A stretch of 64,000 bases of DNA from Rhizopus arrhizus (lineage: Eukaryota; Mucoromycota; Mucoromycetes; Mucorales; Rhizopodaceae): positions 3,100,001-3,164,000 of the forward strand of contig JAKZZE010000001.1 of assembly GCA_024220505.1 (NCBI GenBank), read 5' to 3'. Positions 5,014-50,847 of the stretch are shown one piece after another. Under the pieces are notes generated by a model that worked only from the letters and a program-made list of their open reading frames with translations, was not told the DNA's origin and ran no database searches. The translations under genes and the position numbers were made by a program. Position 1 is the first letter of the stretch. Every line of letters starts with the position of its first letter.

Positions 5014-5163
5014 TCACGAGATAACACAGCAAGATTTATTACTACTGAAATGGGTTAGTTTATACTTTTCGCTTAATTTATATCTATTGGAATATTACGG
5101 TTCATAACCAACAGGTGGAGGAAGGGCAGGAGAACACAAGGTTTGTTCAATTACTTTATCCAT
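5014..5163 (-). CDS. Tiny CaaX-box peptide precursor, copy 1 (ends CVIS)
   Basis: Two exons, 5099-5163 and 5014-5044, separated by a 54-nt intron with GTAATA donor, ACTAAC branch site and TTTCAG acceptor, encode 31 aa. Exon 1 contains SPALPPPVGYEP; exon 2 reads SNKSCCVIS and then TGA. C-V-I-S is a typical farnesyltransferase CaaX box. No signal peptide or membrane segment is visible. The ATG at 5163 lies 53 nt downstream of a TATATAAA box that belongs to the element shared with the other copies. I recognise no named family. Size, Pro-rich middle and terminal CaaX resemble fungal lipopeptide pheromone precursors; that role is inference. Exon structure rests on frame and splice signals only. 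Confidence 0.7.
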
Positions 5164-5207
5164 GTTTTGATAAGAGTAAAATTAAAAAAAAATAAAAATA
5201 AAAATGC

Positions 5208-5246
5208 TTTTATATAAAATCATATATGTTGTCAGTTAGTGGCTCG
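5208..5246 (-). promoter_or_regulatory. Shared upstream element and TATA box of CaaX copy 1
   Basis: On the minus strand reads CACTAACTGACAACATATAT, then TTTTATATAAAAG. Aligns with the elements of the other copies (TGRCAACAT, 10-15 nt gap, TATAAA). Confidence 0.6.
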
Positions 5247-5562
5247 TTGTTTTTTTTATTAATAAAAGAACGATGTGCTTGAAAGGAAACGGCCTTAAAG
5301 AACAATTTTAATTTGAGTCATTATCATAGCTGGTGAAACATGCTTTATAGTTGCTTCATCGTATGTTTTAACAAAATTAAAAGTCAACTAGAAGATAAAT
5401 TTATTCACTGGATCTCATTGTAGCTTAGGTTTGTCATCAAAAGATGAGTTTATGATCAAGTTTTTAAGAGAAAATAAAAGTTTGAGTAGTTTGAGTTATT
5501 TTTTAGGTTAATAAAGTTTGCTTATTTATTTAAGCAAAGAAATCTATTTCTTCTTCAAATAA

Positions 5563-5717
5563 TCATAGTATAATACATATAAGGCATCCAGTTTCCTTAC
5601 TATTGAAGTTTATTAGTCCTTGTTTATCTATTGACGTATAATATATTCTTACATTCTATCACTAGGTGGCGGGGTCATAAATGGAGCTCGTGAATTTAAA
5701 TCAGCCATGTTTTTCAT
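5563..5717 (-). CDS. Tiny CaaX-box peptide precursor, copy 2 (ends CIIL)
   Basis: Exons 5653-5717 and 5563-5599, with a 53-nt intron (GTAAGA donor, ACTAATAAAC, TTCAATAG acceptor), encode 33 aa from the first ATG; a second in-frame ATG lies at 5708. Exon 1 includes APFMTPPPSDR, exon 2 KETGCLICIIL followed by TGA. The box C-I-I-L ends in Leu, which favours geranylgeranyltransferase I over farnesyltransferase. The intron is phase 2, as in the sister copies. Read without splicing, the ORF would end three bases after the donor, a pattern repeated in several copies. Confidence 0.68.
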
Positions 5718-5753
5718 TTGAATAACAAGTCTATAGAAAGAAATAAAGGAGAC

Positions 5754-5790
5754 CTATTTATATTCAAGGCTATATGTTGCCAGTCGATCA
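5754..5790 (-). promoter_or_regulatory. Shared upstream element and TATA box of CaaX copy 2
   Basis: Minus strand GACTGGCAACATATAGCC, then TTGAATATAAATAGG. Nearly the same string lies upstream of copy 6 at 10854-10889. TATAAATA begins 46 nt before the first ATG. Confidence 0.65.
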
Positions 5791-6321
5791 GCCATTGTTT
5801 ATGGTAGAATTATCAATTTACACTGGGATTAATGAATCAAGTTAAGATAATCCAGCACCAAGACGTCAAGTATTGAATATCAACATCTACATGCTTTGAA
5901 AGTTGGATGCATGAAATAGTATTACATCTACCAGAACAGTATACATTGAGTACGAGAGGGCATATATCAAGAAAAGCAAGCAAAGAATTCATAAGGTGAA
6001 AGAGTGTCTTGAAGGAAAAAGTATGAAAAGTTGTAAACAGCTCAATACCCAACAGGATGAAATTTCAGTTGACTACCTTTCTTTTCGCTTTCACACGATA
6101 TGCTTTGTGTGCAATCAAGAAGCTATTCATGCTATTCAAATCAGTAAAGTCATAACTCTTGCTGGCTCATTGTTTGAACAATTCACAGAGAACAATTAGC
6201 AAAAACGACATTACGTCTTATTTAGCAACCCTTTTCAAGTTTTCAAAGTGCATAGACTGTTTATTAATGTAGTCAATGAAACTCAAAGAGCCATCTTCAC
6301 TTTTTTTTTTTTTTCAAATTA
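5791..6321. other. Intergenic within CaaX cluster
   Basis: Two antiparallel open stretches of 65-70 codons (5837-6052 minus, 5996-6199 plus) have no recognisable domain; the plus one lacks an ATG at its start. I see no further CaaX unit here. Confidence 0.5.
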
Positions 6322-6480
6322 TCAGGATATAACACAAAAAAAGCATCCACTAACCCGACGGCTTATAGAGTATTTATTAGTTATTACACCACAATTATCA
6401 TATAAATTAAATCCTTACTACTTGAAATCAGATGAATCAGCATAAAATATCAATTGGGTGTCTTCTTTTTTATTAATCAT
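6322..6480 (-). CDS. Tiny CaaX-box peptide precursor, copy 3 (ends CVIS)
   Basis: Exons 6422-6480 and 6322-6361 with a 60-nt intron (GTAGTA donor, ACTAATAAA branch region, CTATAAG acceptor) encode 32 aa starting MINKKEDTQL. Exon 2 is RRVSGCFFCVIS followed by TGA. A second acceptor 12 nt downstream (GGGTTAG) is also in frame and keeps the CVIS end. The start MIN-K is shared with copy 4. A TATATAAA box begins 57 nt upstream of the ATG. No known family. Confidence 0.68.
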
Positions 6481-6528
6481 ACGTCTCAATAAATTGGTTT
6501 AGACTTTAGAAATAGAAAGCATGCATGC

Positions 6529-6575
6529 TTTTATATAGTAGATAGGCCTGTTGTCAATTTAATTAGCTCATTGTC
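6529..6575 (-). promoter_or_regulatory. Shared upstream element and TATA box of CaaX copy 3
   Basis: Minus strand has AAATTGACAACAGGCC, then CTACTATATAAAAGC; a more diverged version of the common element. Confidence 0.5.
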
Positions 6576-6619
6576 TATAATGACATCATGCTTTTTTCAA
6601 CCATAATAAATTTGATTGT

Positions 6620-6950
6620 CTACTGTTTCTACAAAAGCTTGTGTATATAAACATGGGGTCATAGAAAACCTAGCAACTATTAAACACAATAAGCATAAAG
6701 AAGCACAAAGCATCAGCATACATTTCATCTACAGTTTGTCCAGCTCAACTAAAAGGGATATTTTCAAAATATTAAAGCTAGCAGAGATGAAGTTTTTATT
6801 TAAAAATGGAGCATAATCAAAAGTAGCCAATGACTATCTAGAGTACATTTGGAGAATGCCAAATAAAAAAAACGATATAGTATACAAGGATAAACACATG
6901 GAAATAAAAAAAAAATTGCATCAACTATTAATGCAGTAACTTGTTTGTTT
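6620..6950. other. Intergenic, nothing recognised
   Basis: An open stretch of about 65 codons on the plus strand (6616-6816) has no recognisable domain and no typical start context. No repeat or RNA gene seen. Confidence 0.5.
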
Positions 6951-6958
6951 TATAAAAT

Positions 6959-7109
6959 TCAAGATATAATGCAACAAACAGATTTACCGGATCTACAGTT
7001 TAAAACATAATTATTAGTAGTTGTATTTCAACTTTTGTCCAACTAAATTTTACATTTTGCTACCGAGGGGATGAAATAAAACGTTAGAGTTTATTTTTTC
7101 GTTTATCAT
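6959..7109 (-). CDS. Tiny CaaX-box peptide precursor, copy 4 (ends CIIS)
   Basis: Exons 7054-7109 and 6959-6992 with a 61-nt phase-2 intron (GTAAAA donor, ACTACTAATAATT branch region, AACTGTAG acceptor) encode 29 aa. Exon 1 starts MINEKINSNV and contains FHPLGSK; exon 2 is SGKSVCCIIS followed by TGA. As in copy 1, two cysteines sit together before the aliphatic pair. C-I-I-S should be a farnesylation box. The upstream element and TATA-like TATAAG lie about 48 nt before the ATG. Confidence 0.7.
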
Positions 7110-7151
7110 GCTAGATTTAATTGATTGTGTAAAAAGAATCAAATATGTGAA

Positions 7152-7186
7152 CTTATATTCAAGTTTGAATGTTGTCAATCAATGAT
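7152..7186 (-). promoter_or_regulatory. Shared upstream element of CaaX copy 4
   Basis: Minus strand CATTGATTGACAACATTC, then AAACTTGAATATAAG, aligning with copies 2 and 6 over both halves. Confidence 0.6.
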
Positions 7187-7201
7187 TTATTATTCAATAC
7201 T

Positions 7202-7236
<35 letters not shown>

Positions 7237-7466
7237 TAGTTGCCAGAGAGAACACATTCTCTTGAGTAAAAAGAATATTTTGATAGCTAAAAATTAAGTG
7301 TACTTTATCTCTATTCTTCATTTACAATAGAAATCACCTTTCAATTCCAGTAATTTTTGACTTCTAAAACTATGAAATTAATTATCAATTAAAAATCAAT
7401 TAAAAAAAAAAGTCTTTATTATTATACTGCTTTGATAACGTTTGCTCAACATGAACCTAAAGCTTT

Positions 7467-9010
7467 TTACAAATAATCATCTAAACGTTTCCTTTGACTA
7501 ACTCTACTAGATCTCCTAGTTCTTCCAACAGAAGATCTAGAATCACTTTCGATTTCCTCTAGCTTCATTGTACTTTTTTCAATGGGAGCAGTTGAAATAG
7601 GGTTGTTACCCAACACAGCGATTTCACTAGGTGCTATAGGTACTATATCCATACTTTGTTGACCTTCTTTTACTTTACTTGAACTCCCTGATCGTTTTCC
7701 TCTACGACTCACGCTTCTCGACTTACTTTTTCCGTTCTTTCTTTGGCTACCACTGGACGATCTCGAAGCAAAGCGATCCGGTCTTTGATCTGGATCAGAC
7801 ATTATATGAAGCTTTTTTTCCAAGGATTCCACGACAGGAGAAACATTAATAATTTCCTTCAAGTTGTTCTCTTTTATGGCCGTGATCAGTATGCTTGCAA
7901 GTAAAGCAGGCATAATATAAAATAATGCAGACTGGGATTTCTTGGTTAGGTGAGCTGCAAATATAGAGGCACCTGTTCCCACTGCATAAGCAACCATAGA
8001 TGTTTGATAGAATGGCTTTGGGAATTCCTCATCCCTGTTACCCGTCTTCCAAGCTCTACATTGATCAAAACGTAAACAATAAGCAATGAAGATACCTAAA
8101 ATATGAAAATGGTTATAAAAGAAGCAGCGCCCTTTTTATTTTACTACCTGGAATAATAATATCTATTATACTAAGCATCGTGAACAGTTGGTTTTCTTGC
8201 ACCAACCTGTTCAGAACAAATGTTTCTATATTTCTTGGCCATACAATGTTTGTTGGAGCACCAGAAAAGCTTTCGGAGATGTTGACGATGGTTTCTGCAC
8301 CAGATATCCACATGAAATCATGCAAAAGCACACCACACATCAAGATAAGCCCAGCCCAGAAGGAATCAACAGTAATAAATCCAACAATGTTAGTTATAAG
8401 GCAAATGGCAAATAGGTCACCAAGGATCCAGTGTTCTGTCATGATATAAGCTACAGTCAATGCGATGGAAAGAGCCAAGATGAGTAAATGGACTATGGTC
8501 ATATGGACCTGGCATACATCTTTTTCTTTTGGTTTAGTGAATGTGTTTAGACAATGCAACAAATCTACCTCTTCCTTGTCTACTAAAGCAAAATTTATAA
8601 TCACCAATCTTATCCAGCCACTTTCGAGGTATATTATTTTTAGCAATGAGTAAAATGGTATTTGAGAATAAAGCAGTGGATACTATGGATGTTGCTATGG
8701 TGATAGCTTCATTGATATATTCCGGACGAATGGTCTTTAATGCCAAATAAGTATAGAATATAGCAACAAATCCAATAACAGGAAAGAAAAGCGCGTGTCG
8801 AGTAGATATCACATGTGTTCTTTCTTCAGTCTCGTCTTCAAAGCCATTTTCAAACCGAATCCGTCTCCTTTTTCTTGCTGTTGGCTTTTGCATCATCCTT
8901 AGTGAAATGAATGATCCGATACAAATAGGCGTCATGGCGAGGATAAGTAAAGCCAAGGAAGCGCCTGAAAGCGTAAGTAATTGATCGGATGTATTAAAGT
9001 AATACGACAT
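7467..9010 (-). CDS. Signal peptide peptidase-like intramembrane aspartyl protease with altered active-site motifs
   Basis: Polytopic GxGD-type protease relative, expected in the ER. Starts MSYYFNTSDQ at 9010. Three exons: a 43-nt intron (GTAGAT, ACCAAAAG) joins SRQGRGR to EKDVCQVHM, and a second interrupts IDIIIPG/IFIAYCLRFD. About nine hydrophobic segments. Family landmarks: LHDFMWISG where most members have a YD pair (Y to H, Asp kept), LSIIDIIIPG in place of GLGD (Asp kept, glycines changed), and PALLASI for the PAL motif. Both catalytic Asp are therefore present, but the surrounding motifs diverge. The C-terminal 90 residues form a basic Ser/Arg-rich tail ending RKRLDDYL, longer than usual. 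It lies in the middle of the CaaX cluster; no functional link is shown. Confidence 0.85.
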
Positions 9011-9595
9011 GATTTACAATGAAAAGTACAGAGTAAAAAGAATAAAAAAAGAAAATTTAAAAGTAGAGATCATTGACGTCAAGATGTTCGCATAAATTTC
9101 ATGGTTATGTAAGGGCCAAGATGGTTTTCCTTTTTTAGAATAAAAGGTTCGTCATTTGAAAATCATACTAAAAATGATGTATTCGCCTCACGTCTAAATA
9201 TTTCAAAATAGAATCAGGTACGATCACTCTTTATAAGCTTCAATTTATCGCTTACACTAAGAATTTCTATTAAGAAATGTTGACATTGTATTATCGAAAG
9301 AAACAAAGCAGGAGAACAAATTCAAGTACTGCTTACGAACACAAGTTTGCTCTTATCCTTGTATCAATCTTCTACTCGATTGTTGTTCATGTATTGTTGC
9401 GAGTTGTCTTCAAGCTGCTTACAAACATCAAGCAGAGTTGTTATAGTGACAAAAAAAAAAGAGTACTATGCTGGCCTGTCAGTTAAGCTGGATATTTTGA
9501 GGACCATATAATGTCTCATATAAGAAACAAATCTTCTTTACTATAGTTCAATCCAAATGACCCAGTGCCCAATACGTTCATATCACAGAAACCTT
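9011..9595. other. Intergenic, nothing recognised
   Basis: Contains the 5' flank of the SPP-like gene. A 69-codon open stretch at 9277-9486 has a hydrophobic segment but no homology I can name. Confidence 0.5.
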
Positions 9596-10032
9596 TCATC
9601 TTGAGAGGCATGGAATGGCATAACTCGTATCCACATAGGTGTCAGCGTGTAACTCTCGTAGGATTCTCAAGTCAAGAACGGAGCCATGGGGTCCCAAACT
9701 CATTTTCAAAGGTAATTCTATTTTTGAGAATGTGGTCAGTGATGGTTGCGACGGATATTGTTTCACGATGAAGGAAATGAGTTGTACAGATCTACTGATC
9801 ATGTTCAGAAAGACACTGCCTAAGGAACGTTCAATCCTCTCACTTTAGAATAATTTGCTTTGTTTATTGCCACAGATGTCACATTCAAAAGTCGCATGGA
9901 CAAGCAATGTTTGATTCCTGGTTACTGCTTGTAATCAATGTCTGTTTTTAGCTCAGTGGGAGACTCTGGTGCCTGTGATGACTGCACGGCTGCGTTAACC
10001 GATTGGTTAGATATTTTGTCTGAAAGAGCCAT
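9596..10032 (-). CDS. Hypothetical protein, possible two-exon gene
   Basis: A start at 10032 in good context (CCATGG) opens MALSDKISNQSVNAAVQSSQ..., a low-complexity acidic N-terminus ending in IDYK. A GTAACC donor there and an AAAG acceptor about 80 nt on would join in frame to ERIERSLGSVFLNMISRSV... through LHADTYVDTSYAIPCLSR and a stop at 9596. The acceptor is weak and no domain is recognised. This could be a real short gene or chance open frames. Confidence 0.25.
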
Positions 10033-10390
10033 GGACAATGTACACTTGAATTTTCAAAGTGATATACCGGCAGCGGGAAACTCATAGTAAACAAAAAGAT
10101 TGTTTGGGAAAGTACATTATTTCATCAAAAACAATAACAACAAAGGAAATGCAAGGCTATTTATTTTATCTATAAAGTCTAAAGGGATTTGCATGGCTTC
10201 ACTGAACAGTAAATATAATGCTATGGCAGTTGCTTCAATTGACTGATATACTTTTTTTTGAAGAGAAGTAGAATATTTATAATACAAATATTAAAATAGA
10301 TCTTCAATTAGCTGAATACAAATAGAAACTAAAAATAAAAGTGTTCTTTTAGACGACCAACTCTTTGCGTTCAATTCGATAGACAATGAA

Positions 10391-10426
10391 TCACTGTTTT
10401 GTAGCATGTAGCTTCTAATATAAATA
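10391..10426 (+). promoter_or_regulatory. Shared upstream element and TATA box of CaaX copy 5
   Basis: CACTGTTTTGTAGCATGTAG, then CTTCTAATATAAATACA. Matches the copy 6 element at CACTG, CAT, CTT and AATATAAATA with equal spacing. Confidence 0.5.
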
Positions 10427-10474
10427 CACTCGTCTACTTGATTTCTTGAAGCTTTTGTCAGTCAACAAAGAAAT

Positions 10475-10620
10475 ATGAGTAACAACATAATAAATTCACA
10501 ATGTTCTTTTGAGCATAATTATACAAAAATGTAGTATTTTGATTGAATAAAGAGTACTTGTAGCTATAATTTGTAGAGATGATACTGTGTTATATTTAGT
10601 TTATCTTTTTCATTAATAAA
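10475..10620 (+). pseudogene. CaaX micro-gene, copy 5, apparently frameshifted in exon 2
   Basis: Exon 1 (10475-10530) encodes MSNNIINSQCSFEHNYTK and ends, as in sister copies, at AT before a GTAGTA donor; the ATG is 55 nt after TATAAATA. The acceptor TTTGTAG at 10576 joins to a frame reading DDTVLYLVYLFH with no CaaX box. Shifted by two bases, the same DNA reads Y-C-V-I-F, so a Cys-Val-Ile remnant is present out of frame. Likely a decayed member; an unnoticed alternative splice could rescue it. Confidence 0.45.
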
Positions 10621-10853
10621 CTGTCTAATAACTCTTGTATCTTTATCCTGAATTCTATCTTTTTTGTTCCCTTCATACCATTTATGTTAAAGTCTAAAAG
10701 TAATATTGAATACAGGAATAGTAAAGCAACTATTTATTTGATTGGGAACTGAAGCACTTTGATTTTATTGATCATTTATATGCCTTTTTATTTTTGTTAT
10801 ATTTTCTTAATGGCAATGATGAATAAAATCGGAATTTTATCAAGTATAATGAG

Positions 10854-10889
10854 TCACTGACTGGCAACATATGGACTTGAATATAAATA
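10854..10889 (+). promoter_or_regulatory. Shared upstream element and TATA box of CaaX copy 6
   Basis: CACTGACTGGCAACATATGG, then ACTTGAATATAAATATG. This and the copy 2 element on the opposite strand are the best-conserved pair; TATAAATA starts 53 nt before the ATG. Confidence 0.65.
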
Positions 10890-10934
10890 TGAATCTTTAT
10901 CTTTCTTTTCATCTATTTCATTATTCAAGTTAAT

Positions 10935-11083
10935 ATGGTATTTCCTGATCCTTTGCCTACCCCACCACCGAGCCCGGATGAGTAAGATTTGATGGTAGAG
11001 AATCAAAATAGAAATGTTAATTCTATAATTTGAACTATAGATTTGGTAGACACAGTTGTTGTATTATATCTCGACTATTTTAG
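10935..11083 (+). CDS. Tiny CaaX-type peptide precursor, copy 6 (stop lost after CCIIS)
   Basis: Exons 10935-10981 and 11041-11083 with a 59-nt phase-2 intron (GTAAGA donor, GAACTATAG acceptor). Exon 1 is MVFPDPLPTPPPSPDE, with the same Pro-Pro-Pro-Ser run as copy 2. Exon 2 reads FGRHSCCIIS, but the next codon is CGA where copies 1-4 have TGA, so translation continues R-L-F before TAG. The CaaX box is no longer C-terminal and should not be prenylated unless the tail is removed. Either a recently inactivated copy or a sequencing error at 11072. Confidence 0.55.
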
Positions 11084-11886: not shown

Positions 11887-12546
11887 ATGAGGGATTATTT
11901 CTTTCTGATGTACACACTTTACTCACAAGTATTATCAAATAACACTGACATCCTTAACACAATAAATAATCAACAACAAGAAGTATCTTGTATTCATCCA
12001 CTTCAAATCCTCTTGCCTTCTTCACCTAACCTATTCGTCTTGTCACCTTTCTTGATTGAAAATAAGAAAGAAGATAGCGATCAGCTTTCACTTCCTCCTG
12101 TCGAATCTTACGTTTATGAAAAAGAACAAGAAGAATTAAATAGTCTGACAGGTTCTGATGTCAATAGGCTTAATGAAGATGATTTGGATTGTGTTGATCA
12201 AAAGCAAGATATATCTTATGAAACTATTGATGATGAACAAGATTCTGATTGGGAAAAACCAAGTTTTAAAAGAATCAAGAAATCAAGACAGTTTGCATCC
12301 TCTTTAAAGAAGTCTATTTGCAGTGATACTGAATGTGATAATTGCCAAATAACAAAAACTCCTCTTTGGAGACGAAGTCCAGAAGGCAAGATTCTTTGTA
12401 ATGCATGTGGTTTATTCCTTAAACTTCATGGAGTCATTCGACCACTCAGTTTAAAATCCGACATCATCAAAAGAAGAAATCGGTCGGGAAGTACCACTGG
12501 TCGACATAAACGATCAAACAAGAAGAGATCTCAAAAGAAAGTCTAA
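11887..12546 (+). CDS. GATA-type zinc-finger transcription factor
   Basis: Single-exon, 219 aa. One GATA finger at about residues 149-173, CDNC-X17-CNAC with the core [20 protein letters not shown] (type IVa, 17-residue loop), followed by the basic tail [20 protein letters not shown] and a Lys/Arg-rich C-terminus. The [15 protein letters not shown] tail matches fungal nitrogen- and iron-regulatory GATA factors (AreA/Gzf3/SreA group), but one finger alone does not say which. The N-terminal half is acidic and unstructured. The main ATG at 11887 directly follows a minimal upstream ATGTGA (start-stop) at 11881, which could damp translation. Confidence 0.88.
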
Positions 12547-25681: not shown

Positions 25682-26732
25682 CCTGCATGAAAAACTGATG
25701 AAACCCGCTGAGGCTGCTAAACTTGCCAACTTTAATCCAGAAACTGCAAGAAAGTGGAAGAGAGAGTACGAAAAAGACCCTGAGAAGAAGATGCCCTTCA
25801 AAAAGACGAATCGTACATCAAATAGAGCGCCAAGTCAACTAAATGAGAACCACAAAATGCACTTGATCAACTTTTTCGACGAGAATCCCTCAGCTGTTAT
25901 CCAGAATGAAGTCAAAAATTTAACCAAAAGCTTCAAAGGCTTGGAAATAAAGAAGAGTAGGATTGCTGAATTCATGAAAGAAGATTGCAATCTCGGTATA
26001 AAAGTTGTCACCCGCCATCCCAAAGCCAGAAATAGCCAGACGACTCTTGAGGCTCGTGCAAAATGGATTGAAAAATGGCAACAAAAAGGTTTACATTTCA
26101 TGCAGAATTGTGTCTTCCTTGATGAAGCAGGATTCGATGTAAATATGCGTCGTTCAAGAGGTTGTGCACAGCGTGGTAAACCAGTAATTGAAGAAACAAC
26201 TTCTGCGAGGGGTGTATCACATACAGTTATCGGTGCAATTTCAGCATTTGGTGTAGTGAATGTAAGCATGAGAGAGCCGGGTAATGTCAAGAAAAAAAGA
26301 GTTGTTGGTGCTAAAAAGAGAAAGGCATATGAGGATACTGTTGCTGCTATACCAAAAGGAACTACAGCTGGCCATTTTGTGCAATTCATCAGCGATACTT
26401 TAGACATTATGGATGAATTTTCTAACATGAAAGGATTTCATATTGTTATGGATACCGCTCCGATTCACTCTCGTGATGTCGTTGTCCCTATCGTTTTAGA
26501 AAGGGGTTACATACCATTATACCATCCTCCATATTCGCCTGAACTCAATCCTATCGAGATGTTTTGGAAAGTGCTGAAGGATCGAGTTAGAAGAGAGAAA
26601 TTGACAGATACAGAAAAACTTTCTTCAAGAGTAATTGAAGGCAGTGAGGATGTTCCTGTTGAACATATACAAAATTTCATCCAGCACTCCATCAATGTAA
26701 TCCCTAAATGCTTGAATAAAGAACATTTGTGA
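25430..26732 (+). CDS. Tc1/mariner-like DD34E transposase (N-terminal segment damaged)
   Basis: The main open part, 25698-26732, is 344 codons with HTH text (EAAKLANFNPETARKWKREY), a linker LNENHKMHLINFFDENPSAV, and a DDE_3 catalytic core: FLDEAGFD, VMDTAPIHS, and YSPELNPIEMFW with 34 residues between the second Asp and the Glu. The expected upstream part (MNFFYEDGRGG..., from about 25432) is broken by a one-base deletion and a stop at about 25665. The protein could restart at the Met at 25698, losing about 85 residues. The catalytic residues look intact. Family assignment is firm; activity is doubtful. Confidence 0.88.
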
Positions 26733-45601: not shown

Positions 45602-48600
45602 TTAGTCAGAAGAAATAGGATGAAGGAGTCGTTCGATTAACGAGACGATCCTAGGAATAGATTTGTTAATATCAATTGTAGAGATAGGATTGATATTTTC
45701 AGTGCCATGAGACCAATATAAATTCCATTGTTGCCAGAGAATGGTGGAAATTATAGGGATATACTTGGAGCAATACCGTACCCAGTATGGCTTTTTCAGA
45801 GAGGTTAAAGTAAGAATCAGATCTTCAGGTGAGAAGTATAGATGAGGATAATAATGTGATAGGACTTGATGCCAGATGACTTGTTTTGGAGCACAGAGAA
45901 CCAGAAAGTGTTTAAACGAATCTTCCATAGAACCACAAAAGGAGCAGATGGGGGAAGATACGATAGTAAACTTGAATAAAAGATCTTTCGAAGGGATACA
46001 CTTTGAGAATGCACGGAAGAAAATTGTACGGGCTTGTGGATACATGATGGTACGCCAGAACGCTTTAATGTCGGCAGCACCAAATATGATCATAGATTCT
46101 CCAGTGATTTGATAGTGATTACGAAGAGTTTGAGGACAGAATTGGTACCATCGATGATTGGATTTCATTGTGGTAGCTAGGTGATGCATCTTCCACTCCT
46201 CAATTGTTGTAGCATTAGTTACAGGAGGTGCGACTATATGACTCCAAACAAAAGGCTTTAGTTTAACATTACGAGAGACAAGAATTTCATTGTAGAGGCT
46301 TTGACATAACCGTGGAAAACGAGAATATTCACCTTGTACTTTGAGCCTAAGTCTTTGTTGTGAAATGTCAAAGGTTAGAAACAGGTTGGCTGCATAATTG
46401 GCGTGTTTTAAAGTCCAGTGAGTGTATTCGGAGTCCTGACTAGAGGGATATGTGAGAAGATGTCTCAATGGCATTGCTAACAGTGTAGTGACGGGAACTT
46501 GATTCATTTGTATTTTACCGTCATCATTGAAATAATCAAACATTTCAAAGATTACCGGCCAGATGGACAAATGGCGAGGAGAGACAGGACTAATACGACA
46601 TTCTGTATTGTAGAACGGAAGCAGAGGAAAATCTTGTGAGTTTTTAAACTGAGATAAGTGATTGACCATGATAGGATACACAAACGAAGGATAGTCAATC
46701 GGATCAAGTAGGTAATTAAGCCATCGTTTTTGCAATAATTTATGTTGAATAATTGGATTTAGAACCTTCAGGCCACCATACTCGACCGGCATAAAGAGTA
46801 AAGTTTTCTTTAAGCGAGGGGATTTCTTTTGCCAAACAAATTGGTAAATAGCAGAGCCCAACCGTTGAAAGAATTTTTTTGTAGGTTGAAACAGCCTGAG
46901 ACAATACCAGAGTTTAGATAGAATAAGTATGTTCACTACAGTAACTCGACCTTGAATGGACAATTGTCGTTGACTATATATGGCGCATTGTTGATGGATG
47001 GTGCTGATCAGTGTATCTTCAAGGGCACCTCTTTGGTGAGAATTAAATGGAAAACGAAATCCGAGGTATCTAAGAATGCTAGCTGATCCATCATGATAAT
47101 AATTGGAGATGTTGTGAGAGTGTAGGACAGTAGTCCAATCTTCATCCAGTTTACCGTTGAGAAATATAGCTTCAGATTTATCTTCATTAAACTTAGCATT
47201 CGACACATCAGAATATCGTTGCATATGATAATGAAGTAAACCTAGTTCCTCGGAGTTATCAAGAAAAACACATATATCATCAGCATACGCTAAACACTTA
47301 ATAGTAGGAGTTGGGTTCACTGAAGGTACGGCCGGCGATTGATATCCAGATAAACCATCTTCTTGTAATAGGTGTAATAGAAAAGGTTCCAGAGCTAGGT
47401 TAAACAATAACGGTGATAGGGGATCCCCTTGTCTTAATCCACGTTGCTGAGTAATAGGATCAGTAAAAAAACCGTTAATGTTGACATAAACTTGATTTTC
47501 AAAAAAAAGAGTCAGAATGCAGGTGATGATGGTTGAGGGAAAGTGAAATCGTTCTAGTACGCGACGTAAATATAGAGGATGTACTCGATCATACGCCTTT
47601 TCTTGATCCAATAAGATTCCAACACCAGAATAATCCAATCCTCTACTTTCATCCAGAATCATTGATAGTGCAAATCCATTATCTCCGATAAATCTACCAG
47701 GAATAAATCCAGTTTGATAGTCATTTAATATGCTGTTCATCATTTTTCCTAATCGTTGGGCCAAGATTCTGGTAAAAAGTTTTGCATCGCAATTAATTAG
47801 TGAAATTGGTCGCCAGTTTTTCAATAATGACAGATCTCCCTTTTTCGGTAATAATCTAACACGGATATCTTGCCATGACGAAGGAAAAACACCATTTATA
47901 GCATCTTGATATAGTTGAAGAATGAGTAGCTCAAGTATTTCTAAATTGAATAAGAGTGATAGGTAGGGATATCCTAATCCATCTGATCCAGGACTGCTGT
48001 TGGCTGATAGCCTGGAGGCTTGAGATTGAAGTTCTTCCACAGAAATAGGTTCAGTCAGTATCTCTTGATCTTCTTTAGATAAAGTGTTTGTAAAGGTTAT
48101 TTCATCAAGATAATCCTGAATGTGATTATCTTCAACTTCGTCCTTGGTGTACAATTGGTTATAAAAATTTTGAGTAATATTATTCATAGAGTGACTATCT
48201 ACTCTGATAGTCGATGCCGATGAATCGGTATTGTTATGAAGTTCAGTGTTAGTACTGGTAGGTTCCCGTAATCCAGGTATGAACTGTTGTGCCGTGCGTT
48301 GATGATGTATATTTTCCAGGTACTTTGGTGATTTTTCCCCTTTTTCTCTCCATACCACGCCAGACTTCAGTGCTGCAATTTCCACTAGTTCTTGTTGTAA
48401 TGTGTCGATCATCTTGTCAATCTTGGGTAGAATTAAAAGTCGAGTTGCTATTGGTGGTTTAGATCTAAGAAACCTATTTCTTTTCCTCTCCAATTGTTTA
48501 AGTGCTGACTTTCTCCAAGAAACATGTTTGATTCCAAATAATTTAATCCACTTTTTGGTTACCTTTTTAACTTCTTCCCATAGAACCTGAGCATTCATCG

Positions 48601-49468
48601 TGATTAGATCTTTTTCTGTTTGATGAAGTAGCTCTGAAAGTTTTTGTTGTAGTTGTGCTTTAAACTGTGGATTTGATGCATATGATGGATTTCCCCGAAA
48701 TAAGCCTGGTCCTAGTTTTGAAGGTCCTAAATCTAAAGCAACGTGTAATATTGCATGATCTGACCATTGTGATTGTATATAATGTACCGAGTTATCAATA
48801 AGACGACTTTTAATAATCCCACCTAAATAAATGTAATCAATAGTAGAGGTGATGTTGGCTGTACGTTGAAATGTCGGTATGTTGTTCATAGAGTTGTGGA
48901 TCATACTATTAAAGAAGAAGTTTTCTAATAGAGATGTCCATGCTGTTGAAGTTTTAAAGAGACCTCGTTTGCTATCAATATCGCGCGCAAGATCGTAATT
49001 AAAGTCACCTGAGATAATCAAGTTATTCCAGGAAATAATGTCATTAAGTTCATATAGTAAAGTAACCATGGATTCAAAAAAAGAACGCCGCGCACCATTA
49101 GAATCCGCCGGGGCATAGACATTAAGAATATAGAATGGTTCATAGAAGTTGTGTGGATGGTGTACCTTACAGAGTAAGAATCGATCCGATGTAAAAATGT
49201 GATCGGTATGAATTTGAGTTAATATATAATTTGTGGAAAAGGAGACGATACCACAATAGTAAGTCCAAAATGTTTGTTGAGCTTGAAATTGAGTATCCAT
49301 AGAAGGAATAGTAGAAGGAGTGGCATGGGTTTCTTGTAAAGAGAGAATGTCGAACTGTTGTTCACGAAGATAACGAATATAAAAGGATTGTGTAGTTGCT
49401 GAAGAGGTTTTCACTAAACTGTTACTGTTTAGAGAACCATAATTGAAAGAGACATGTTTCTCTCTCAT
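45602..49468 (-). CDS. LINE ORF2: APE-type endonuclease and reverse transcriptase
   Basis: 1288 aa starting MREKHVSFNYGSLNSNSL at 49468. Endonuclease residues 1-240: DILSLQETHAT, NVYAPADSNGARRSFFESM, ISGDFNYDLARD, QWSDHAILHV. RT centre: LLPKKGDLSLLKNWRPISLI, GFIPGRFIGDNG, GILLDQEKAYDRVHP, QRGLRQGDPLSPLLFNLALE, CLAYADDICVFLD (catalytic YADD). C-terminal zinc knuckle-like CSFCGSMEDSFKHFLVLC. No internal stop. The A of its ATG is the last base of the ORF1 stop (TAATG), so translation probably depends on termination-reinitiation. Confidence 0.93.
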   Translation of the reverse strand: MREKHVSFNYGSLNSNSLVKTSSATTQSFYIRYLREQQFDILSLQETHATPSTIPSMDTQFQAQQTFWTYYCGIVSFSTNYILTQIHTDHIFTSDRFLLCKVHHPHNFYEPFYILNVYAPADSNGARRSFFESMVTLLYELNDIISWNNLIISGDFNYDLARDIDSKRGLFKTSTAWTSLLENFFFNSMIHNSMNNIPTFQRTANITSTIDYIYLGGIIKSRLIDNSVHYIQSQWSDHAILHVALDLGPSKLGPGLFRGNPSYASNPQFKAQLQQKLSELLHQTEKDLITMNAQVLWEEVKKVTKKWIKLFGIKHVSWRKSALKQLERKRNRFLRSKPPIATRLLILPKIDKMIDTLQQELVEIAALKSGVVWREKGEKSPKYLENIHHQRTAQQFIPGLREPTSTNTELHNNTDSSASTIRVDSHSMNNITQNFYNQLYTKDEVEDNHIQDYLDEITFTNTLSKEDQEILTEPISVEELQSQASRLSANSSPGSDGLGYPYLSLLFNLEILELLILQLYQDAINGVFPSSWQDIRVRLLPKKGDLSLLKNWRPISLINCDAKLFTRILAQRLGKMMNSILNDYQTGFIPGRFIGDNGFALSMILDESRGLDYSGVGILLDQEKAYDRVHPLYLRRVLERFHFPSTIITCILTLFFENQVYVNINGFFTDPITQQRGLRQGDPLSPLLFNLALEPFLLHLLQEDGLSGYQSPAVPSVNPTPTIKCLAYADDICVFLDNSEELGLLHYHMQRYSDVSNAKFNEDKSEAIFLNGKLDEDWTTVLHSHNISNYYHDGSASILRYLGFRFPFNSHQRGALEDTLISTIHQQCAIYSQRQLSIQGRVTVVNILILSKLWYCLRLFQPTKKFFQRLGSAIYQFVWQKKSPRLKKTLLFMPVEYGGLKVLNPIIQHKLLQKRWLNYLLDPIDYPSFVYPIMVNHLSQFKNSQDFPLLPFYNTECRISPVSPRHLSIWPVIFEMFDYFNDDGKIQMNQVPVTTLLAMPLRHLLTYPSSQDSEYTHWTLKHANYAANLFLTFDISQQRLRLKVQGEYSRFPRLCQSLYNEILVSRNVKLKPFVWSHIVAPPVTNATTIEEWKMHHLATTMKSNHRWYQFCPQTLRNHYQITGESMIIFGAADIKAFWRTIMYPQARTIFFRAFSKCIPSKDLLFKFTIVSSPICSFCGSMEDSFKHFLVLCAPKQVIWHQVLSHYYPHLYFSPEDLILTLTSLKKPYWVRYCSKYIPIISTILWQQWNLYWSHGTENINPISTIDINKSIPRIVSLIERLLHPISSD

Positions 49469-50847
49469 TAAATACTATTTGAAAGTGCTGGCTGAGACGA
49501 TTGCTCGGCCGGGAGTTCCTGTTGATTAGGAGAGCTCACATATGTTCTTAATTTTAAAGATGTCGATGCACTACTTGTAATGTTACTATCCACCTTGTCA
49601 ATATCGTCATCCACATCTTTCATTAAAATATCCACTTCCTCTGGGCTAATTTCTTGAACCGAATCAGTATCATCATCAGTGCTGGAATCCTCGTCATCAC
49701 CTTTAGGATCATAATCAGGATCATTCATTTCTTCGTCCTCTTTTTCCTCATCGTCACCTTCCTTGCTCTTCTCATGTAATGCTTCAAAAGGGTTGGATGA
49801 AAAGAAGGACTGGTCTTCTACTATTGATTGAGTCTGCGTGCCATTATATAAGGTTGTTGGAGACTTGGGTGGAGCCCATTGAGATTTGAGTAATTCGTGG
49901 GATGGTGGAAGTTGCGCAGTTGATTGACTATCGATGTCTTCTACCTGCTCAGATGAACGGTTGATCTTTCTTTGTTTCTTGAAAGGCTTAGTACCATTAT
50001 TTTTTGAGCGAGCAGGAGATGGACATTCCTTGGACATGTGACCATACTTGTCACAAGAATAACATAAAATACGTGCTTTGGATTTAGCACATTCATACTT
50101 AGTATGACCTTCTGAGTGGCAATAGCGACACCAGACAGGCATATCGGGAAAAGTGGCGTAACAAAATTCTTTACCACCGTTAAAGTAGATAATGTGTTCA
50201 AGCTTGTTAAATGAGTTAGCTTTAGGACGTTGAATAACTGCATAACCTAATCCTGTAAAGAAACCTCGAGATGATTCATATTTAAGTCCAAAATCCATAA
50301 TATTACCGAATTTGGATAAGGCTTCACTAAGTTCAGATGTAATCTGATCTTTTCCCAGAGGTGGAAGCTCAGACAAATTGAGTTGTACAACTTCACCCTC
50401 ACCTTCCAAGGCTTTACAGGGGAGAAGGCGGAGTCTAGAATCCTCATAATATACGCCTTGAGTAGTAAAAGATGTTCTTATGTCAGGTACTGGATATACT
50501 TCAAGATAACGTTCCTTATTTTTTCCAATAAACTTAATTCCATTAAAATTTCTGGCACCGCCGTATTGATCCGCAAGGTATTCTAGGTGCTGTTGTTCAG
50601 TAACATTGGGAACCTTCGAGATGTCGAGAAAAAACCCATTAGAGACACGGGCATGTCTCCAAATGGTAGAGCGAACAGTAGTGTCTGGTTGAGTGTTATC
50701 AGAAGTAGGATATCCGTTGGTTGAAGAATCTGTGGCGGCTAGATTCATAAGTGATGTTTTAGTTATGACTGTACGTTTGGCAACGTCTGAATAAGACCTT
50801 CCCTTCGGAGTTGAAGGTAGGTCTGATTTTTTATCGGGAAGAGCCAT
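49468..50847 (-). CDS. LINE ORF1: gag-like RNA-binding protein with two CCHC knuckles
   Basis: 459 aa starting MALPDKKSDLPSTPKGRSYS. An RRM-like middle (KFIGKNKERYLEVYPVPDIR, IMDFGLKYESSRGFFTGLGY) is followed by two tandem CX2CX4HX4C knuckles, CRYCHSEGHTKYEC and CYSCDKYGHMSKEC. A long acidic Ser/Asp/Glu tail ends QPALSNSI. Typical of ORF1p that coats LINE RNA. The start at 50847 is 29 nt from the element's 5' boundary. Confidence 0.9.
   Translation of the reverse strand: MALPDKKSDLPSTPKGRSYSDVAKRTVITKTSLMNLAATDSSTNGYPTSDNTQPDTTVRSTIWRHARVSNGFFLDISKVPNVTEQQHLEYLADQYGGARNFNGIKFIGKNKERYLEVYPVPDIRTSFTTQGVYYEDSRLRLLPCKALEGEGEVVQLNLSELPPLGKDQITSELSEALSKFGNIMDFGLKYESSRGFFTGLGYAVIQRPKANSFNKLEHIIYFNGGKEFCYATFPDMPVWCRYCHSEGHTKYECAKSKARILCYSCDKYGHMSKECPSPARSKNNGTKPFKKQRKINRSSEQVEDIDSQSTAQLPPSHELLKSQWAPPKSPTTLYNGTQTQSIVEDQSFFSSNPFEALHEKSKEGDDEEKEDEEMNDPDYDPKGDDEDSSTDDDTDSVQEISPEEVDILMKDVDDDIDKVDSNITSSASTSLKLRTYVSSPNQQELPAEQSSQPALSNSI

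What the first reader, a model, noticed from the sequence alone, without database searches (positions are those of the whole stretch)
5014..11083. Cluster of two-exon micro-genes encoding 29-33 aa peptides that end in CaaX prenylation boxes
Seen directly: four units (5014-5163, 5563-5717, 6322-6480, 6959-7109) each have a short exon 1, a phase-2 intron of 53-61 nt with good splice signals, and an exon 2 whose frame ends Cys-aliphatic-aliphatic-Ser/Leu-stop (CVIS, CIIL, CVIS, CIIS). A fifth (10935) has the same layout with CCIIS, and a sixth (10475) looks decayed. Without splicing most of the ORFs stop at or just after the donor, so ordinary gene finders would miss them. Established: short CaaX precursors are the form of farnesylated pheromones in ascomycetes and basidiomycetes. 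Inference: this is a multi-copy lipopeptide precursor family in a lineage known for trisporoid signalling, perhaps pheromone-like or another prenylated peptide signal. I know of no description of it.
Basis: partly seen in the sequence, partly recalled or inferred. Interest (0 to 1): 0.95.

Follow-up and report, generated by a model that had tools for sequence, protein, structure and literature searches.

The report
Hidden family of CaaX-tailed mini-peptide genes
A fungal genome carries a family of nine intact tiny genes, split by predicted introns, whose roughly 30-residue products end in the four-residue signal for lipid attachment; the peptides would be farnesylated and likely serve as lipid-tagged signals, in what appears to be an early-diverging fungus.

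Summary
U1-U4 (5014-7109, minus strand) are two-exon mini-genes with phase-2 introns of 53-61 nt and peptides of 29-33 aa ending CVIS, CIIL, CVIS, CIIS. U5 (10935) keeps the layout, but its frame runs three residues past CCIIS: no terminal CaaX. U6 has none. All six share a promoter (TGRCAACA-like box, TATA box).

Whole-genome patterns found five more intact members at three other loci and one decayed copy: 12 copies, nine with CaaX. Only two (N1, N3) were found by promoter alone. Shuffles of the five new units gave CaaX models in 15 of 5000 and CCaaX in 0.

Three members and the decayed copy stand in tandem about 480 nt upstream of the farnesyltransferase alpha-subunit gene.

Farnesylation is predicted. 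Action as a-factor-like exported lipopeptides is my leading, unproven reading: no STE3-type receptor was found (no positive control), and all nine carry a second cysteine near the CaaX cysteine, as in dually lipidated Ras tails, which makes inner-membrane micropeptides a close rival. Transcription, splicing and conservation in other species are untested; the lineage is inferred.

The parts
5209..5250 (-). U1 promoter block (ACAAC..TGACAACAT..ATATAA)
   Evidence: TGACAACA box from 5234 and TATA box from 5215
5099..5163 (-). U1 exon 1 (MDKVIEQTLCSPALPPPVGYEP..)
5045..5098 (-). U1 intron, 54 nt, phase 2, CTAAC branch-like motif
   Evidence: splicing predicted
5014..5044 (-). U1 exon 2, ends NKSCCVIS-stop
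5757..5798 (-). U2 promoter block
5653..5717 (-). U2 exon 1 (MKNMADLNSRAPFMTPPPSDR..)
5600..5652 (-). U2 intron, 53 nt, phase 2
   Evidence: splicing predicted
5563..5599 (-). U2 exon 2, ends GCLICIIL-stop
6530..6574 (-). U3 promoter block
6419..6480 (-). U3 exon 1 (MINKKEDTQLIFYADSSDFK..)
6362..6418 (-). U3 intron, 57 nt, phase 2
   Evidence: splicing predicted
6322..6361 (-). U3 exon 2, ends GCFFCVIS-stop
7152..7193 (-). U4 promoter block
7054..7109 (-). U4 exon 1 (MINEKINSNVLFHPLGSK..)
6993..7053 (-). U4 intron, 61 nt, phase 2
   Evidence: splicing predicted
6959..6992 (-). U4 exon 2, ends GKSVCCIIS-stop
10846..10887 (+). U5 promoter block
10935..11083 (+). U5: exon 1 10935-10981, intron of 59 nt, exon 2 11041-11083; frame continues RLF after CCIIS, so no terminal CaaX
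10383..10424 (+). U6 promoter block (box diverged: TTTTGTAGCAT)
10475..10601 (+). U6: decayed copy, no CaaX tail
   Evidence: whole-unit profile match to 10601

Best explanation
A family of nine intact mini-genes, four of them in this window, encodes by predicted splicing peptides of about 30 residues that end in a CaaX box (Cys-x-Ile-Ser, once Cys-Ile-Ile-Leu); they are predicted to be farnesylated (the CIIL one perhaps geranylgeranylated), trimmed and methylated at that cysteine, and likely act as exported lipopeptide signals in the manner of fungal a-factor precursors. Shown by sequence: the shared promoter, CaaX ends in frame, copy number, tandem arrays and decayed copies; tail codons vary mostly synonymously. 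Predicted: transcription, splicing and prenylation by the genome's own prenyltransferases. Inferred: N-terminal trimming, export, and recognition by a receptor that is not an obvious STE3. Turnover of copies with diverging heads, either Pro-Pro-Pro type or F-x-P-x-T-K type, on a constant lipid tail would give several distinct signals from one maturation route.
For: Gene reality: in 10 units the ATG lies 43-59 nt after a TATA-like box that follows a TGRCAACA-like box. N1 and N3 were found by the promoter pattern alone and end CCIIS and CCTIS. C11 was found by promoter and independently by tail. N2 was found by a whole-unit profile and M by tail, its promoter seen afterwards. Of the 30 places that came with DNA, 23 are not family and 0 of these 23 gave a CaaX model; of 23 places, 15 are not family and 0 of these 15 did. 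Shuffles of the five new units: 15 of 5000 CaaX, 0 of 5000 CCaaX. Tail codons of seven CC members: 69 synonymous (stop codons included) against 17 non-synonymous differences in 21 pairs. Machinery: three loci with prenyltransferase beta domains; N1, N2, decayed N4 and N3 stand in tandem upstream of the farnesyltransferase alpha gene on the same strand, about 480 nt from N3 stop to its likely ATG. Shortness and CaaX match a-factor precursors as described in PMC10569646 (passages); that such genes are often multi-copy is recalled.
Against: No STE3 match in the genome, even at E <= 10 (no positive control). Mondo et al. (PMC5705715, section 10) state that Mucoromycotina lack all mating pheromone recognition genes of Dikarya. 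All nine intact tails have a second cysteine (CC in seven, CxxC in two), unlike the a-factors I recall. No receptor gene was recognised in the open frames I scanned near the clusters, which was not exhaustive. The promoter-only profile separates C11 and N1 (E 1.4e-7, 2.5e-6) from background but not N3 (0.16), N2 or N4 (1.1), and does not list M; the best unrelated place had E 0.3. M was chosen by its tail, so its tail conservation is partly selected. No expression, splicing or cross-species evidence. The farnesyltransferase alpha gene is a housekeeping gene and its adjacency may be chance.
Confidence: 0.4

Rival explanations
1. The peptides are intracellular micropeptides held at the inner plasma membrane by a double lipid anchor, farnesyl on the CaaX cysteine and palmitoyl on its neighbour, as in Ras tails. 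Their short heads would recruit or block partners at the membrane.
For: A second cysteine lies within three residues of the CaaX cysteine in 9 of 9 intact members, and a Lys or Arg lies within five residues of the cysteine pair in 8 of 9 and within six in 9 of 9 (sequences). No STE3 found. Five heads, counting U5, carry Pro-rich stretches of the kind bound by SH3/WW domains (recalled).
Against: I recall no fungal family of such tiny membrane-anchored peptides, whereas short multi-copy CaaX genes are known as pheromone precursors (recalled). Head divergence and tandem copy turnover are more typical of signals.
Confidence: 0.35
2. The mini-genes make prenylation decoys that compete with Ras or G-gamma proteins for farnesyltransferase and so tune its output; the array next to the alpha-subunit gene would be a regulatory partner.
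For: Tandem array directly upstream of the farnesyltransferase alpha gene; the CaaX tail is the part most alike among members.
Against: Three of four loci are elsewhere; the heads fall into two recurring types, more than a decoy needs.
Confidence: 0.07
3. The second exons are broken-off tails of Ras or G-gamma genes, so the units are gene fragments without function.
For: CCIIS resembles the tail of yeast Ras2 (recalled).
Against: The four G-gamma tails that I read in this genome end in Met (CCSVM, CCTVM, CVLM, CIIM). The tail pattern search, which covers only this form of tail, gave 18 places: 7 family, 8 copies of one 18-mer (context identical in the two inspected), and 3 without the family promoter. 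Ras genes were not searched as such. Shared promoter and mostly synonymous tail variation speak against fragments.
Confidence: 0.03
4. Chance: short open frames and splice-like sites in AT-rich DNA.
For: The window has 34% GC, and a loose rule finds four unrelated CaaX models in the same 64 kb.
Against: Shared promoter; recovery of CaaX tails at N1 and N3 by promoter alone; 0 of 5000 shuffles with CCaaX.
Confidence: 0.02

Closest known systems
Ascomycete and basidiomycete a-factor-type lipopeptide pheromone precursors
   Same: Very short precursors with terminal CaaX, easily missed by annotation (PMC10569646, passages); several copies (recalled)
   Different: Second cysteine near the CaaX cysteine in all nine; a predicted phase-2 intron just before the tail; no STE3 found; no Pfam match at E <= 1; link to a mating locus not tested
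Trisporoid mating signals of Mucoromycotina
   Same: Would be a signal in the same kind of fungus, if the lineage is confirmed
   Different: Carotenoid-derived small molecules, not gene-encoded peptides (PMC5705715 section 10; PMC12111849, one passage)
Ras-type double-lipid membrane tails (yeast Ras2, recalled)
   Same: CC-aliphatic-aliphatic-Ser with basic residues upstream
   Different: No GTPase domain; the whole protein is about 30 residues
G-protein gamma subunits
   Same: Small proteins with CaaX tails, some CC
   Different: Those read in this genome carry the G-gamma domain and end in Met

Membership tests
a-factor-type lipopeptide pheromone precursor | Very short precursor (under 100 aa) | tested here: met
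   28-33 aa in eight members; M is 31 aa spliced or 49-60 aa unspliced
a-factor-type lipopeptide pheromone precursor | C-terminal CaaX | tested here: met
   9 of 12 copies; U5, U6 and N4 lack it
a-factor-type lipopeptide pheromone precursor | CaaX prenyltransferase in the genome | tested here: met
   beta domains at three loci; alpha subunit
a-factor-type lipopeptide pheromone precursor | STE3-class receptor in the genome | tested here: inconclusive
   0 matches at E <= 10, no positive control, six-frame search without regard to introns
a-factor-type lipopeptide pheromone precursor | Sequence match to a known pheromone family | tested here: not met
   No Pfam family at E <= 1 for ten peptides and the 49-aa reading of M
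a-factor-type lipopeptide pheromone precursor | Link to a mating-type locus | not tested
   the mating locus of this genome was not searched
a-factor-type lipopeptide pheromone precursor | Actual farnesylation, export and mating response | not testable with these tools
   needs mass spectrometry and genetics
G-protein gamma subunit | G-gamma domain | tested here: not met
   No Pfam match for the peptides; G-gamma genes lie elsewhere
Ras GTPase | GTPase domain | tested here: not met
   No Pfam match
Dually lipidated membrane micropeptide | Palmitoylated cysteine near the farnesylated one | not testable with these tools
   Second cysteine present in 9 of 9; acylation unknown

The most novel reading that the evidence does not exclude
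An early-diverging fungus, of a group said to lack Dikarya-type pheromone sensing, has its own multi-copy family of farnesylated peptide signals with two head types, one array sitting beside its farnesyltransferase gene, read by a receptor outside the STE3 class.
Probability: 0.3. Interest if true: 0.92.

Novelty: new variant of a known kind. Interest (0 to 1): 0.74.

Why it matters
Peptide pheromone genes were looked for in an arbuscular mycorrhizal fungus, where STE3 and STE6 orthologues were reported, and not found (PMC3834313, passages). In Mucoromycotina the Dikarya recognition set was reported missing (PMC5705715). A family of CaaX mini-genes in what looks like such a genome, hidden by introns and size, gives a concrete list of peptides to synthesise and test, and a promoter-plus-tail recipe to search relatives. 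It would show either peptide signalling outside Dikarya or a new class of lipid-anchored micropeptides.

Tried and rejected
Protein database search with an alignment of the peptides: no candidate shared three words. The control with the window's SPP-like frame returned one hit, but full-length relatives were outside its length range, so neither call says much about conservation. STE3 search: no match, no control. G-gamma origin: rejected on tails. Ras-tail origin: no source of this tail form found. C18:692861, a promoter-like match with 3 mismatches, had no CaaX model and looks like chance. Tail matches at C41:373177, C7:613397 and C1:892757 have no family promoter. PDB profile search: four matches, all E > 0.9, to methionine aminopeptidase, treated as chance. 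Structure prediction was not run. Ten library searches showed no description of such a family in their listings; the library lacks most subscription journals.

Limits of selection: N2 was found by a profile that includes the tail and M by the tail pattern, so only N1 and N3 are blind to the tail; C11 was found both ways. Of the 52 places only the 30 with DNA were scanned for CaaX. U1 also allows another splice model with the same tail, and N3 allows an intron of 58 nt instead of 49. M's spliced form rests on a weak donor. The first scan read loci in contig orientation and so missed the minus-strand units; it was replaced.
Full report
What is there. The window is C1:3100001-3164000 of an unnamed 50.3-Mb genome in 41 contigs. 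U1-U4 lie on the minus strand at 5014-5163, 5563-5717, 6322-6480 and 6959-7109. Spliced, they read MDKVIEQTLCSPALPPPVGYEPSNKSCCVIS, MKNMADLNSRAPFMTPPPSDRIKETGCLICIIL, MINKKEDTQLIFYADSSDFKYRRVSGCFFCVIS and MINEKINSNVLFHPLGSKISGKSVCCIIS. Each has exon 1 of 3n+2 nt, an intron of 53-61 nt starting GTA, and a CTAAC/CTAAT motif 10-21 nt before the 3' splice site. U5 on the plus strand (10935) has the same layout, but its frame ends CCIISRLF, so its CaaX is not terminal. U6 (10475, plus) has lost the tail.

A shared promoter. Aligning the units with their upstream DNA shows one promoter in all six: an ACAAT-like box, a TGACTGRCAACAT box (diverged in U6), then a TATA box; the ATG follows 46-56 nt after the TATA box in U1-U5. 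This makes them paralogous genes, not scattered open frames.

More members. The promoter pattern with up to one mismatch gave 52 places in the genome against 26 for the reversed control. Thirty came with DNA: seven are family members (U1, U2, U4, U5, N1, N3, C11), and none of the other 23 has a CaaX model. N1 is C1:3019961-3020109, MDIETVSLQAVTFSPSTKFNDKSCCIIS; N3 is C1:3017638-3017788, MKNGIIIDGLDFPEPPPRTGGGSKSSSFCCTIS; C11 is C11:819943-820090, MINEFTSSQVAFNPSGTKLGDKSCCVIS, which the tail pattern had also found. A profile of the six window units then found N2 (C1:3019147-3019298, MINKVAYTQTAYDPGPSYSTKLFPNGCCVIS) and gave E = 1.6e-23, 1.3e-13, 7.4e-11 and 2.3e-6 for C11, N1, N2 and N3 among the DNA then fetched. 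The tail pattern TGYTGYRYHATHTCNTRA gave 18 places against 2 for its control. Seven are family, including M (C1:370681-370830), which has the promoter and matches a profile built without it at E = 1.1e-8. M ends CCAIS either unspliced (49 aa from the second ATG, 60 from the first) or with a 54-nt phase-2 intron of weak donor (31 aa). A second promoter pattern gave 23 places against 12 for its control: eight family places, including the decayed N4 near C1:3018150, and 15 others without CaaX. A third gave seven places against one: six family members and one chance match. In all: 12 copies at four loci, nine with an intact CaaX. The lists are lower bounds, because diverged promoters escape these patterns.

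Is it more than chance? Dinucleotide shuffles of the five new units gave CaaX models in 15 of 5000 and CCaaX in 0 of 5000. In the window a strict rule hits only U1-U4 among 300 TATA-like starts; a looser rule also hits four unrelated sequences. In the seven CC tails, codon differences over 21 non-independent pairs are 69 synonymous (stops included) and 17 non-synonymous; variable columns by codon position are 1, 2 and 5 of 6 (Fisher P = 0.03). Against me: a promoter-only profile separates C11 and N1 from background, but not N3, N2 or N4, and does not list M.

Neighbours. N1, N2, N4 and N3 run in tandem toward a gene on the same strand (C1:3015975-3017156, borders by eye) whose exons match the farnesyltransferase/geranylgeranyltransferase-I alpha subunit: PPTA repeats E = 2.7e-20, solved farnesyltransferase alpha chains E = 1.5e-27. 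Its likely ATG lies about 480 nt after the N3 stop. The PPTA search shows three loci over the cut-off and one weak match, of which I identified only this one further. The first cluster flanks an intramembrane-protease-like gene (7467-9010), one of three A22B loci. Whether the farnesyltransferase adjacency is meaningful was not tested statistically. Only selected open frames were scanned: 13 of the window, plus frames of L042-L044.

What it most likely does. X = Ser predicts farnesylation and X = Leu geranylgeranylation (general knowledge). The fungal genes this short with CaaX that I recall are pheromone precursors; PMC10569646 (passages) describes a very short protein with CaaX or CPAX as the only strict mark. 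So export as lipopeptide signals is my leading reading at 0.4. Against it, no STE3 was found, and PMC5705715 (section 10) states that Mucoromycotina lack Dikarya pheromone recognition genes. PMC12842992 (passages) finds STE3-like receptors mainly in Ascomycota and Basidiomycota, while a 2026 review, PMC13308352 (passages), says class II receptors occur in most early-diverging fungi. PMC3834313 (passages) reports STE3 and STE6 orthologues but no peptide pheromone gene in an arbuscular mycorrhizal fungus. The constant second cysteine points to a double lipid anchor on the inner membrane, the close rival at 0.35.

Lineage. GC of the window is 34%. A NAT10-like gene near the C11 member is nearest to Dispira (79%), Gigaspora (77%) and Funneliformis (79%) among named hits, but full-length proteins were outside the length range. 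Class C GPCR matches occur at four places.

Not in print, as far as searched: ten library searches, judged on listings and the passages named above. PMC8778642 (passages) mentions CaaX only for proteases.

Noticed in passing
C1:3015975-3017156 (L042:3975-5156, minus): Farnesyltransferase alpha-subunit gene directly downstream of the second CaaX mini-gene array.
   Followed up: yes
window 7467-9010, minus: Signal-peptide-peptidase-like gene between U4 and U6; its two aspartate motifs read LLHDF and SIIDI, unlike the usual YD and GxGD (recalled). A stronger match to the family lies at C4:1020700 and another copy at C2:411787.
   Followed up: partly
window 11887-12546, plus: GATA zinc-finger factor gene next to U5.
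   Followed up: no
L044:1376-2272 (C11), plus: Open frame that by eye reads like an OrfB/Fanzor-type nuclease near the C11 mini-gene; no Pfam match.
   Followed up: no
window 25698-26732, plus; 45605-49474, minus: DDE transposase frame and a long reverse transcriptase frame.
   Followed up: no
L043:3205-4187 (C1:3024205-3025187), minus: ABC ATPase gene pieces about 4 kb beyond N1, the far end of the second array.
   Followed up: no
promoter blocks of U1-U6: ACAAT-like core resembling HMG-box sites (recalled) and a TGAGTCA site in U5; regulators untested.
   Followed up: no
C8, C11:59808, C15, C18 (three), C38, C39: Eight copies of one 18-mer matching the CaaX tail pattern by chance inside what looks like a repeated element (two inspected).
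   Followed up: partly
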